From Candidatus Methanimicrococcus labiotermitis (GTDB lineage Archaea; Halobacteriota; Methanosarcinia; Methanosarcinales; Methanosarcinaceae): a stretch of 46,434 nt of DNA. This document shows, piece by piece, positions 26,095 to 35,153 of this stretch. The notes beneath the pieces are model-generated. The model was not told the DNA's origin, searched no databases, and was given only the letters and a program-made list of their open reading frames with translations. The number at the start of each line of letters is the position of its first letter. The stretch's first letter is position 1. Where the stretch lies: positions 1 through 46,434 of the forward strand of contig WRCE01000012.1 of assembly GCA_009784005.1 (NCBI GenBank), read 5' to 3'. A program made the position numbers and the translations under genes.

Positions 26095-29000
26095 TCATCC
26101 GTAAATGATGCCGGAAGCGTTTGTCAGCGGGTCCTTTTCCACTTTGAAATTTTCATCCGCGGAATCGATAAGCGACTCATCATGCGAGACGACAATAATT
26201 TGCCCGACGCCGTCTTCTTTCATGTGTTCGATCAATTTTATCAATTGGCGTATGTGACCGCTGTCCAAAAAGACGGTCGGCTCATCGAAAATGAGCGGCG
26301 GGAGAGATGTCGTACCTGAGTTATTTTCGCCAAAACCGTAAGACAAAAGGCGGTAAATCGCGCAGCGAAGCGCCAAATTAAAGATGGCGCGCTCGCCGCC
26401 GCTGAGTTGTTTCGGCTCCAAAACCGACCCGTCTTTTTCATGAACTTTCAAATTGTAATCGGTATCCAGTTCCAAATGTGAATACGAATTGTTGGAATAA
26501 ATGAGGTCAAACATGTCATTGATCAGACGGTCCAGCGCTTCAATGTTTTTAGAACGCATCTCCGAGCGGATGCGGCGGTACATGTCTTCAAGCGCTGCGA
26601 CATCGTCGGCGACAAAAGACAGGCACTTTGTTTTGTTTCTCAGAATTTCCAGTTCCTTTTCAAACTGCGTAAGCTGCTTGATTTCGTTTCCGATCATTCC
26701 GATTTCCCGGTCTACATCGGATCTCGTCTGCTCGCGGTTCCAAATGTCTTCCGAAATAACTCTTATGTTTTCCAAAAGCCTGTTCTTTTGTTCTTCCGCG
26801 GTCGCGGGGGCGCCGTCTCCTGCTGTTCTGTCTCCTGTTGTTCCGTTTCCGTTTATTCCGTCTCCGATTATTTCGCCGGCGGCGGCAACTTTTTCCGCTA
26901 AATTCTTGGCTTTTATTTCTTTGTCGGATTTTTGGCTCTTTAAATTTTCAATTGTTGTATCCTGTTGTTCAATTGCTTTTTTGCCGCCGTCTCGTCTGAT
27001 TTTTGCGCTTTCTTTTTCATTTCTCAGCTCTTCCAACTTTTCGGCTTTTGATAAGATTCCTTCTTTTTCCGCCAAATCTCTCAAAGCATCCCGCTCTTGC
27101 GCTTTTATGCTTTTTTCGTCATCCGTTATTTTTTCAAGCCCGGTCTTCAAAACCAGAAGCGTTTTTTCGATTTCCTCTGCTGATTTTTCAATCTCTTCCA
27201 TCCGCTTTTGCGCCTCTTTGGAAAGCTTTTTTTCACTCTCAAGCGTTTTATAATCCAGCAAAACGCCGTTTGCGGCATTGGAAAACTCTTTCTTTCGTTC
27301 TGAAAGCAGCCGGCCGCTCTCCTCTTTTTCGGCGTGTTTTTCTTTTAATGCCGACAGCCGCTTTTCAATCCCTTCCAAATCTTTCTTCCGCGCGCTGCAG
27401 GACACATCCGATTCAATTTTACGGGCGTTCCATTCTGTTTTTTGCCGTTCGTTTTCCGCCAAATCCTTTTGATATATCTCAATCAATTCCGTTTTTCCTT
27501 TGACTTCGGCGTTCAGGGTATTGATTCCCAGCCTGATCTTTTCAATTTTTTTATCAAGACTCTGAATGTCTTTCAAAGCGGCAGCCTGCGGTTCATTAAC
27601 AGCCGCCTCATTTTGAATCTCTCCTAATCGGATTTTGATTTCCGTAAGACGCTTCGCTTCGTCATTTGTTCCGTGTTCGGGATGGCCTTCGCCGGCGGTA
27701 CCTGCGGCACCCGCGGTGACTGCCTTGATTTCCTGTCCGCAAGTCGGACATTTGCCGGCTTTCAGCAGCGCTTCTTTTTGTGAGATGATTTTTTCAATGC
27801 TTGACTTTTCCGACTTCAACCCCGATTCTTCGGACATGAGCGACTCTTTTTTCTGTCGTAAAAAATCGGAGGCGTCGTCGACATCGGTTGCCATAATATT
27901 GTTGAACCGATATCGGGACAAAGACGCCGTTTCAATTAAAATCGGGCAAACTTTGAGTTTTTCATTTCTCTTTTTCGTGTCTTCCGCCAGTATAATTTCA
28001 AAGTCGGAAACCAATTTCTTCTTCTTTGAAAGTTCAGCCTGTTCGGTTTTCAAAGAGATTTCCGTTTTATTTTTATCCTCATTCAGCCGGCGAATCTCCT
28101 TTTCAATATCTTCAATCCCTTTCTCCTTTTCTTCCAATTCGCCTTTCGTCGCCGCCTTTTTCTTCTCTTCGGCGGTCACCTTGCCGTTTTCGTCTTTAAT
28201 TTTGGCGGCAATAAACGCTTCAAGCGCCTCAATATCTTCAAAAAGCGTTTTCCACAAGTTTTCATCAGATGGCGGCGGCAGCTCTTTCGCTTTCACGGCG
28301 CCGGAATAAAAGGCCATGTTGTCAAAAACATTGCCGAAAGGCGTTTTTTCAAAAGATGTGTTGCCAAAAGCTGCATTGCCTGAAGGCGTATTGCCAATTT
28401 CGGCTGCCTCCACTCCTCCCTCTGTCTCGTCTCCATCCTCGCCCGCCGCCATTTTGATGATATTTGCTTCTTCATCATTCTTTTTGAATTCTTTCAGCAT
28501 TTCATCAAAAAGCGTCAGGAAGGCGTTTTTCTCAATACCCGCCTTGGTTAATCCGCCTTCGACGGCGGTATTCGCGGCGCTGATTGCGTCCGCATTCCTT
28601 TTCGCCTGTACGACAGCGGCTGCCCGTGTGTCTTTCAGCGTTTTTGAATCCGCTTCACTCTTTAAAATGTCTTTTTCAATGTTTGCCTTGTTTGCCGAGA
28701 TGACGGCGGCCTATTCTGAAATCTTGTGTTTTGTTTCCAAGGATTTCTTTTCCGCTTCTTTGGCGGCGCTGATAAATAATTCAATATTCGTTTCCGTTAT
28801 TTTGGGTAATTCATTTGCGGCGGCGACTTCTCTCGTTTCATTTAATTCTTTTCGGATTTTTTCGGCTTCTTCCGCTATTTCTTTTTCTTTCTTTTCGGCG
28901 GCGATGATTCCGAGAAGCGTTTCTTCTCGTTTTGAAATTTCAATATCTAATTTTCTTCCGATGTCTGCTGCGTCTCTTTTCAAAACGTCAATTTCTTTTT

Positions 29001-29772
29001 TGTCATCTTCGATTTCTTTTAACAAACGCTCTAAAAGCGTTAATTTTTCAGAAGCGGCTTCCTTTTCCTTCCTTTTTTTATCAATGAACGCGTTGATCTT
29101 TTCAATCACTTCTCGCCTGCGATTGAGTTCGTCATGAAGGTTTTGCCCCCGAAGCGAAGTGATTTTTTCCTCCGTCTCCACCCTTCTTTCATTCTCTTGG
29201 CGAAGAACGCGGGTGACCGCTTTTTTAGATTCCTGAGCTCTTTCGCGGTATTCTTCCAATTTGCCGAGCCTGAGCAAATCATCAATCATTTGCTGGCGTT
29301 CCTCGGGCTTGGCGTTAATGAGCGCGTCCACTTCGCCCTGCCTGATATAAGAACAGTTCAAAAAGTTCTTCTCATCCATATTCAGTAATTTTTTCACCGC
29401 TTCATAGGTTCCCGTCACCTGTTCGGCAATAATCTCCCCGTTCTTTTTCAAGACGGATTTAGAATTCGACGCCCCTCCCGTTTTCTTCTGAATACGGAAC
29501 TGCTGCTCTATCTGATAATCATCTCCCGCGTGCTCAAAGTCCAAAATAATCTCGGCCTTTTCACTGCCTTTTCGAATCATATCGGCGGTTTTAAGCTTAA
29601 GCGACGTGTTTTCCAAAACCTTTCCGCCGAACAGGCCCATAAAACAAGCTTCCAAAATACTTGATTTACCGCTGCCGTTGACACCGGAAATAACGGTGAC
29701 GCCGTCTTTAAAATCCAAATCCAAATTTTTGTAACTTCGGATATTTTCAATATGGAGGCGTTTGAATTTCAT
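26095..29772 (-). CDS. rad50: Rad50 double-strand-break repair ATPase, with one in-frame TAG
   Basis: One continuous frame of 1225 codons with a single TAG at 28711-28713 (codon 354). Before it: Walker A GVNGSGKSS (~30-38), Q-loop YIRQGEVDALI and the first coiled-coil arm. After it: zinc hook CPTCGQ, the second coil arm, signature LSGGERAIFNLALR and Walker B PPLIFDEPTVFLDSGH. The 70 codons after the TAG are open and coiled-coil-like, so there is no frameshift. Since Rad50 needs both halves of its ATPase, readthrough with an amino acid (pyrrolysine is the candidate) is likely. The start ATG overlaps the mre11 stop. Alternatives are a nonsense mutation or two separately made halves (internal ATG at 28500). 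Stop TGA. Confidence 0.85.
28711..28713 (-). other. in-frame TAG codon in rad50 (putative sense codon)
   Basis: Context on the minus strand is CACAAGATTTCAGAATAGGCC, giving HKISE-TAG-AAVISANK within the coiled coil. The frame continues for 871 more codons. Confidence 0.85.
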
Positions 29773-34124: not shown

Positions 34125-34247
34125 AATTATTTCCTCGCTTTAAAGTGAAGTCGCGCATTTTCATTTTTTTTGAACAGGCGCGGTTTCGTCATTTTTGAAT
34201 CAGTGTGATTTTATTTTTTGAATCCCTGTGATATTATTATTTCTGAA

Positions 34248-35153
34248 TCAGTGCGCTTTCATGACTTTGTTCTTGTAATGCTTTCTGATTCCGATCGCGG
34301 CCAAATTCATGAAAAAGACGATTGCAAGAAGCACAAGAGCGGTTCCGTACTGGATCGGTCGCGCCGCTTCAATATTCATGCTTTCTGTTGCCATCACATA
34401 CAGGTGATAGGACAGCGCCATGAAGGGCGAAAACACGGAATCGGGAAGTCTCGGGTAGAAATAAACAGCGCCCGTGAACAAAATCGGCGCCGTTTCTCCG
34501 GCGGCGCGGCCGATGCTGATGATAATGCCCGTGATGATGCCCGCGTATGCGGATGGCAGAACAGCGCGGCGGATTGTCTCCCACTTCGTGACGCCCAACG
34601 CCTAGGAAACTTCCCTGTATTCTTTCGGGACGGCAAGCAGCGCTTCTTGCGTTGTTCGGATAATGACAGGCATAATCAAAAAGCCCATTGTCAAAGACGC
34701 CGTGAGCAGTGATAGAGGCATGCCGAGATATTTAATGAAAAGCGCCATGCCGAACAGACCGAAAATGATAGACGGCGTTCCTGCCAAATTATTGACGGCT
34801 TGTTCAACGGCCCACTTCACTTTTCCTTCCGATGCGTATTCCGTCAGATATATGGCGGAAATAATGCCGAGAGGGACCGCGACAAGCAATGAAAGTATCA
34901 CCAATTGGATCGTTCCGACGATACAGGGGAGAATACCGCCCTCCATCATCTGCCTCCTCGGCATCTGTGTCAAAAAGTCAAATGAAATGACAGAATATCC
35001 TTTCAGGAAAATGTCTGCCAATATGACCATAAGAATAACAATAACGAGGATGGTCGCCGCTCTCATAAATGAGAACGCGATTTTTTGATAAAGATTGCGT
35101 CTCGTGCGGTGCGCTTCTTTTTTGCCCTGTCCGAATATGTTTACAGCTGCCAT
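34248..35153 (-). CDS. pstA: phosphate ABC transporter permease PstA, with one in-frame TAG
   Basis: One frame of 301 codons with a single TAG at 34602-34604. The first part has the N-terminal membrane segment (ATILVIVILMVILADIFL) and several further helices (LVILSLLVAVPLGIISAIYL). The TAG lies in the conserved cytoplasmic EAA loop: VPKEYREVS-TAG-ALGVTKWETIRRAVLPSA, where PstA proteins usually carry one residue in REAS-x-ALGAT. The remaining helices (GIITGIIISIGRAAGETAPI) follow. A truncated product would lack the loop that docks PstB, so readthrough is expected. Only 2 bp separate it from the pstC stop. Stop TGA. Confidence 0.87.
34602..34604 (-). other. in-frame TAG codon in pstA (putative sense codon)
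   Basis: The TAG replaces one residue in the EAA-loop motif between REVS and ALGVTKW; the ALG-T-W motif continues in the same frame. Confidence 0.87.

What the first reader, a model, noticed from the sequence alone, without database searches (positions are those of the whole stretch)
28711..34604. UAG behaves as a sense codon: four in-frame TAGs in three genes, and no gene here stops with TAG
Seen directly: mre11 (31023, 30801), rad50 (28711) and pstA (34602) are interrupted only by TAG, never by TAA, TGA or an indel. All 35 complete genes I call end in TAA or TGA (roughly half each). Random nonsense mutations would give all three stops and would not spare the frame in three essential-type genes. 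Established: Methanosarcinaceae carry pyrrolysyl-tRNA synthetase and tRNA(CUA), and some archaea are known to use UAG broadly as pyrrolysine. Inference: this genome uses such a code, so routine gene callers would wrongly report these genes as fragments or pseudogenes.
Basis: partly seen in the sequence, partly recalled or inferred. Interest (0 to 1): 0.95.

Follow-up and report, generated by a model that had tools for sequence, protein, structure and literature searches.

The report
TAG read as pyrrolysine, not stop
In this archaeon of the genus Methanimicrococcus the triplet TAG interrupts ordinary genes for DNA repair and phosphate uptake, almost never ends a gene in the two fifths of the genome examined, and occurs beside a whole gene kit for pyrrolysine (the 22nd amino acid), so TAG is likely read here as pyrrolysine instead of stop, and routine gene callers would wrongly report such genes as broken.

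Summary
Mre11 (two), Rad50 and PstA carry four in-frame TAGs at the stated places, and 0 of 35 complete window genes end in TAG. The genome belongs to Methanimicrococcus and encodes tRNA-Pyl(CUA), PylS, PylB, PylC and PylD in one cluster. In 42% of the genome 2 of 472 genes end in TAG (32 expected from the next in-frame stop, P 2.5e-12), and both meet a TAA or TGA within four codons; a relative without PylS over the cut-off ends 12 of 65 genes in TAG. Seventeen TAGs lie inside 16 genes: four in methylamine methyltransferases, 13 elsewhere. Proteins of relatives cross seven inner stops, all TAG, after one TAA that is a gene's own end is set aside. In three of four genes compared the part after the TAG is as conserved as the part before it. 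Public homologues of PstA and Mre11 end exactly at two of the four window sites. Best reading: UAG is a pyrrolysine sense codon genome-wide, a "Pyl code" already published for other archaea (recalled; paper not held). Full reassignment versus ambiguous decoding is untested.

The parts
29769..31550 (-). mre11 (DNA double-strand break repair nuclease), one frame of 593 codons with two in-frame TAGs, TGA terminator
   Evidence: Mre11_Halo NF041030 313 bits (below its cut-off of 550) over residues 35-418 and Metallophos PF00149 over 35-208, both spanning TAG 176; Metallophos_2 over 35-275 spans both TAGs
31023..31025 (-). in-frame TAG, mre11 codon 176
   Evidence: sequence; variable or gapped position in relatives
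30801..30803 (-). in-frame TAG, mre11 codon 250
   Evidence: sequence; Trp (TGG) in 28 of 29 relatives; public protein P0242 ends one residue before it
26095..29772 (-). rad50 (DNA double-strand break repair ATPase), one frame of 1225 codons with one in-frame TAG, TGA terminator
   Evidence: Rad50 NF002572 693 bits (below its cut-off of 1087), ATPase domains at both ends
28711..28713 (-). in-frame TAG, rad50 codon 354
   Evidence: sequence; variable position in relatives
34248..35153 (-). pstA (phosphate ABC transporter permease), one frame of 301 codons with one in-frame TAG, TGA terminator
   Evidence: TIGR00974 PstA 288 bits (over its cut-off of 193) over residues 24-294, spanning the TAG
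34602..34604 (-). in-frame TAG, pstA codon 184
   Evidence: sequence; Leu in 16 of 23 relatives, His in two Methanimicrococcus; public protein P0003 ends at the residue before it

Best explanation
UAG in this Methanimicrococcus genome is likely read as pyrrolysine in whatever gene it occurs, and in the 42% of the genome examined only 2 of 472 genes end in TAG. PylB, PylC and PylD are predicted to make pyrrolysine, PylS would charge it onto tRNA-Pyl(CUA), and this tRNA would outcompete the single release factor aRF1 at UAG without a special RNA signal. Genes that ended in TAG would be extended past their ends, so selection has likely removed TAG from gene ends. Once TAG is mostly sense, single-base changes that create TAG inside genes (TGG to TAG in mre11, CAG to TAG in a permease) would be tolerated, so TAGs come and go between species in ordinary genes such as mre11, rad50 and pstA. 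Shown: the pyl cluster, the TAG counts, the intact frames, conservation behind the TAG, and homologues that end at the same sites. Inferred: the identity of the residue, the efficiency of reading, and that the full-length proteins work.
For: Whole pylTSBCD cluster over family cut-offs; 2 mtmB, 1 mttB and 1 mtbB with in-frame TAG as positive controls. TAG terminators 2 of 472, both with a TAA or TGA 2 or 4 codons on, against 32 expected; same method finds 12 of 65 in G008, which has no PylS over the cut-off (Fisher P 2.8e-10), so it can see TAG stops. 17 inner TAGs in 16 genes; seven of eight stops crossed by relatives' proteins are TAG and the eighth, a TAA, is the gene's own end. Behind the TAG identity to the nearest relative is 88% (before: 80%) in PstA, 83 (85) in a METTL5-like methyltransferase, 82 (76) in a permease. 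P0003 and P0242 end exactly at the PstA and Mre11-250 sites. No TAG needs an RNA element: PYLIS_1 in mtmB, none in the window.
Against: Mre11-250 is a near-invariant Trp (28 of 29), an odd place for a tolerated swap, and Mre11 is less similar behind its first TAG (62 against 77%). No relative searched shares the TAGs in Mre11, PstA or the permease, so they may be young. G032 has PylS and still ends 14 of 75 genes in TAG, so the kit alone does not prove reassignment. 25% of other genes also have a second stop within four codons, so the two TAG-ended genes may be real TAG stops. P0003 and P0242 are protein records; their stop codon could be TGA or, for P0242, a contig end. Sample is 42% of a 93% complete genome.
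Confidence: 0.87

Rival explanations
1. UAG stays ambiguous, as reported for Methanosarcina: some ribosomes insert pyrrolysine and some stop, so these genes give both truncated and full proteins, perhaps depending on methylamine supply.
For: A review states that UAG serves as both sense and stop in pyl-bearing archaea, with 20-30% read-through of an introduced amber codon in M. acetivorans (passages of PMC2933860). aRF1 is intact and single. Up to two genes may still end in TAG.
Against: TAG has almost vanished as a terminator (2 of 472), and the inner TAGs sit in the middle of conserved domains, which is costly if most ribosomes stop there.
Confidence: 0.3
2. UAG is still a stop and the interrupted genes are decaying pseudogenes or assembly errors in a metagenome-like draft.
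For: No relative searched has these TAGs in Mre11, PstA or the permease; one hits a near-invariant Trp; the genome is a 62-contig draft.
Against: Inner stops crossed by homology are TAG only (7 of 8, the eighth a gene end); frames stay open and conserved behind the TAG; homologues in other assemblies end at two of the same sites; TAG is missing from gene ends.
Confidence: 0.06
3. UAG is read as an ordinary amino acid by another suppressor tRNA.
For: The sites correspond to different residues in relatives (Trp, Leu/His, Gln, Ser/Cys, variable), so alignment does not name the residue.
Against: Of 39 tRNA matches typed only tRNA-Pyl has a CUA anticodon; the list is not complete, as ARAGORN found two tRNA-Pro genes outside it.
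Confidence: 0.03

Closest known systems
Archaeal 'Pyl code', all TAG codons as pyrrolysine (Kivenson et al., Science 2025; recalled, not held)
   Same: pyl genes, TAG nearly absent as terminator, TAG inside ordinary genes
   Different: No proteomics here; whether Methanimicrococcus was included there could not be checked
Ambiguous UAG in Methanosarcina, with pyrrolysine in tRNA-His guanylyltransferase of M. acetivorans (Heinemann 2009, seen as a reference)
   Same: pylTSBCD, TAG in a gene outside methylamine use, explained there by neutral evolution
   Different: The review describes TAG also used as a stop, for example for pylB of three species (PMC2933860); here pylB does not end in TAG and TAG stops are 2 of 472
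Conditional code of Acetohalobium arabaticum (Prat et al. 2012, described in passages of PMC8211752)
   Same: UAG read as pyrrolysine through a pyl system
   Different: A bacterium in which UAG is pyrrolysine only on trimethylamine and stop on pyruvate; regulation is untested here

Membership tests
Archaeal Pyl code (features recalled) | Complete pyrrolysine synthesis, synthetase and tRNA(CUA) | tested here: met
   pylT, pylS, pylB, pylC, pylD adjacent on C11
Archaeal Pyl code (features recalled) | TAG rare or absent as terminator | tested here: met
   2 of 472 in 42% of the genome, 1 of 360 in sampled M. blatticola
Archaeal Pyl code (features recalled) | TAG inside genes unrelated to methylamines | tested here: met
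   13 TAGs in 12 such genes
Archaeal Pyl code (features recalled) | Pyrrolysine found by proteomics at TAG sites | not testable with these tools
   no peptide data
Methanosarcina-type ambiguous UAG | TAG still ends a fair number of genes | tested here: not met
   2 of 472, both doubtful
Methanosarcina-type ambiguous UAG | Truncated and full products from one gene | not testable with these tools
   needs protein data
PYLIS-directed recoding | PYLIS-like element behind the TAG | tested here: not met
   Rfam PYLIS_1 in one mtmB (83 bits), none in the window; 100 nt behind the four TAGs fold no better than shuffles (z 0.1, 0.6, 1.0, 1.6), but the mtmB control also gives only z -0.5, so folding is a weak test

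The most novel reading that the evidence does not exclude
In Methanimicrococcus UAG has fully ceased to be a stop and pyrrolysine has become a fixed residue of housekeeping proteins: the Mre11-Rad50 repair complex holds three, one of them in place of a near-invariant tryptophan, a swap made more than once in the genus, so DNA repair depends on an amino acid whose supply evolved for eating methylamines.
Probability: 0.35. Interest if true: 0.78.

Novelty: new member of a known kind. Interest (0 to 1): 0.58.

Why it matters
Genes with in-frame TAG are split or dropped by standard annotation, so this genome would seem to lack intact Mre11, Rad50 and PstA. If UAG is truly reassigned, Methanimicrococcus offers small genomes and a named strain (M. 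blatticola DSM 13328) in which to watch a codon change its meaning: among PylS-bearing relatives sampled, TAG stops range from none to 19%, and the TAG sites turn over between species. It would also tie core DNA repair to methylamine metabolism.

Tried and rejected
Random decay or error: rejected, because inner TAA and TGA are missing. When all three stops may be crossed at the stricter penalty in 446 kb, 9 TAGs and 12 TAA/TGA are crossed. Six of the 12 are a slip of my bookkeeping (the own stop of minus-strand genes cut at the sample edge); the other six look like gene junctions by inspection: five have an ATG within 12 codons, one a TTG at the sixth codon. At the looser penalty 26 TAA/TGA were crossed beside 9 TAGs; I inspected only the six named. 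The same slip made the terminator counts slightly low; one search corrects them (472 in place of 468, and so on) and changes no conclusion.

A second release factor as the cause: rejected; full-length aRF1 is single in G000 and G001-G005, while G015 has two.

An RNA signal: no support.

Common descent of the Mre11-250 stop: not supported. P0242 is nearer to M. blatticola and G003 (78-79%) than to G000 (64-72% by alignment), and G000's nearest relative G004 has Trp, so the change looks independent.

The first gene-finder run, which learned its stop scores, gave 1 TAG terminator at its first pass and 0 later; I replaced it by equal fixed scores.

Literature: searches did not list the 2025 Pyl-code paper and its DOI is not held. 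Of PMC11362671, PMC9723798, PMC9499178, PMC11363022, PMC8211752 and PMC2933860 I saw passages only.

Full report
What is there. The window is contig C12 of a 1.69 Mb draft genome, 93% complete. Three genomes of the same genus were named by identical match coordinates: G005 equals the genome that holds the M. blatticola DSM 13328 record, G001 that of Candidatus M. odontotermitis, G002 that of Methanimicrococcus sp. OttesenSCG-928-J09. Of 35 complete genes called in the window, 19 end in TGA, 16 in TAA, none in TAG.

The decoding kit. Contig C11 carries, side by side on the minus strand, tRNA-Pyl with a CUA anticodon, pylS, pylB, pylC and pylD; the four proteins score over their NCBIfam cut-offs, and none of these frames ends in TAG, since they were listed complete with TAG read as sense. 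Two mtmB genes, an mttB and an mtbB, each with one TAG, serve as positive controls. The one mtmB locus tested carries PYLIS_1; the window has no match. All 39 tRNA matches of the genome were typed and only tRNA-Pyl has CUA; ARAGORN found two tRNA-Pro genes outside that list, so it is not complete. There is one full-length aRF1. PylS over the cut-off is also found in four of the other five genomes of the genus; the fifth, G004, is 66% complete and has an mtmB with TAG.

Stop use. I wrote a Markov gene finder that gives the three stops equal scores as terminators and lets TAG be sense at a cost. In 711,813 bases (42% of the genome) it gives 248 TGA, 222 TAA and 2 TAG terminators, and 17 TAGs inside 16 genes. 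The share of TAG is 6.8% among the next in-frame stops (32 of 472) and 9.9% in non-coding DNA, so about 32 TAG ends were expected (P 2.5e-12). Both TAG-ended genes meet a TAA or TGA two or four codons later, so neither needs TAG as a stop; but 25% of other genes also have a second stop that near. With the same method TAG ends 1 of 360 genes in sampled M. blatticola, 0 of 68 in G001, 0 of 22 in G004, 0 of 66 in G014, 0 of 68 in G007 and 0 of 63 in G015. It ends 12 of 65 in G008, which has no PylS over the cut-off, so the method can see TAG stops. Against a simple story, G032 has PylS and uses TAG in 14 of 75. In the smaller samples of G001 and G004 the lack of TAG ends is not significant alone (P 0.13 and 0.36).

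Are the inner TAGs sense? First, kind of stop. Proteins of relatives (794 sequences) aligned to the G000 sample cross eight stops with at least 12 identical residues on each side: seven TAG and one TAA; the TAA is the end of a called gene. Four of the seven are methyltransferase sites, three are window sites (Rad50 and both of Mre11). Second, conservation. Against the nearest relative, identity before and after the TAG is 80 and 88% in PstA, 85 and 83 in a METTL5-like methyltransferase, 76 and 82 in a permease, 77 and 62 in Mre11, whose later part is less similar in the other relatives too; Rad50 was not measured in this way. Third, recurrence. Public protein P0003 (183 aa, 78% identical, two contigs) ends at the residue before the PstA TAG; P0242 (218 aa, two contigs, longest 256,955 bases) ends at the residue before Mre11 site 250. 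These are protein records; the stop codon behind them could not be read. P0242 is nearer to M. blatticola than to G000, so that change looks independent.

What the TAGs replace. Mre11 site 250 is Trp in 28 of 29 relatives and aligns with Ile in the solved Mre11 chain 3auz. PstA site 184 is Leu in 16 of 23 and His in two Methanimicrococcus. The permease site is Gln in all five genus relatives. The METTL5-like site is Ser or Cys in 13 of 16 ungapped relatives. Rad50 354 and Mre11 176 are variable. At five of these six sites at least one relative has a codon one base from TAG; PstA is the exception. In Mre11, PstA and the permease no relative searched has a TAG. In the METTL5-like search one genome of another genus, G021, shows a TAG inside its second match, which I did not follow. 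Three TAGs in mre11-rad50 exceed the 0.14 expected from the 13 TAGs outside methyltransferases (P 4e-4 for this pair, chosen after the fact).

How it likely works. Pyrrolysine would be made and charged by the pyl products and inserted at UAG in competition with aRF1. A review holds that in Methanosarcina UAG is both sense and stop, with 20-30% read-through of an introduced amber codon and no strict need for PYLIS (passages of PMC2933860; similar in PMC9499178). In Methanimicrococcus the near loss of TAG ends suggests that the sense meaning has won. TAG would then drift in and out of ordinary genes, as proposed for tRNA-His guanylyltransferase of M. acetivorans (Heinemann 2009, seen only as a reference). 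The identity of the residue and the efficiency of reading are untested.

Known or new. An archaeal code with all TAG as pyrrolysine was, as I recall, published by Kivenson and colleagues in Science in 2025 with proteomics; the DOI I tried is not held and searches did not list it, so I could not check whether Methanimicrococcus is in it. A paper on this genus mentions pyrrolysine synthesis in almost all its genomes but has no occurrence of 'stop codon' or 'genetic code' in its main text (PMC11362671); another has pyrrolysine only in its references (PMC9723798). I file this as a new member of a known kind.

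Noticed in passing
G032, contig C41 (L161-L165): A family relative with PylS over the cut-off ends 14 of 75 sampled genes in TAG: pyrrolysine kit and TAG stops in one genome.
   Followed up: partly
G000:C2:68002-69315 and G003:C112, G001:C23: An MtmB paralogue without the TAG in G000 and G003; the G001 copy shows one TGA inside its match.
   Followed up: no
L224/L223 region, G005:C1:399252-400163: M. blatticola has an in-frame TAG in what looks like a pseudouridine synthase (named from recall of its motifs), at codon 242 of 303.
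   Followed up: no
window 26095-31550: Three of the 13 TAGs outside methyltransferases fall in the mre11-rad50 pair (expected 0.14, P 4e-4, chosen after the fact).
   Followed up: partly
G000:C4:4323-13505 (L010): A 3060-codon RHS/FG-GAP protein with SpvB- and TcdB-middle-like domains and one in-frame TAG.
   Followed up: no
window 3043-3300: A run of short repeats that reads FTWN over and over on the minus strand.
   Followed up: no
window 44223-46433: A large open frame cut by the contig end; its repeats look like those of a surface protein (by eye).
   Followed up: no
G000 tRNA set: Four tRNAs (Met, Tyr, Arg-TCG, Trp) are found only when introns are allowed; the Trp one has an intron of 119 bases.
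   Followed up: no
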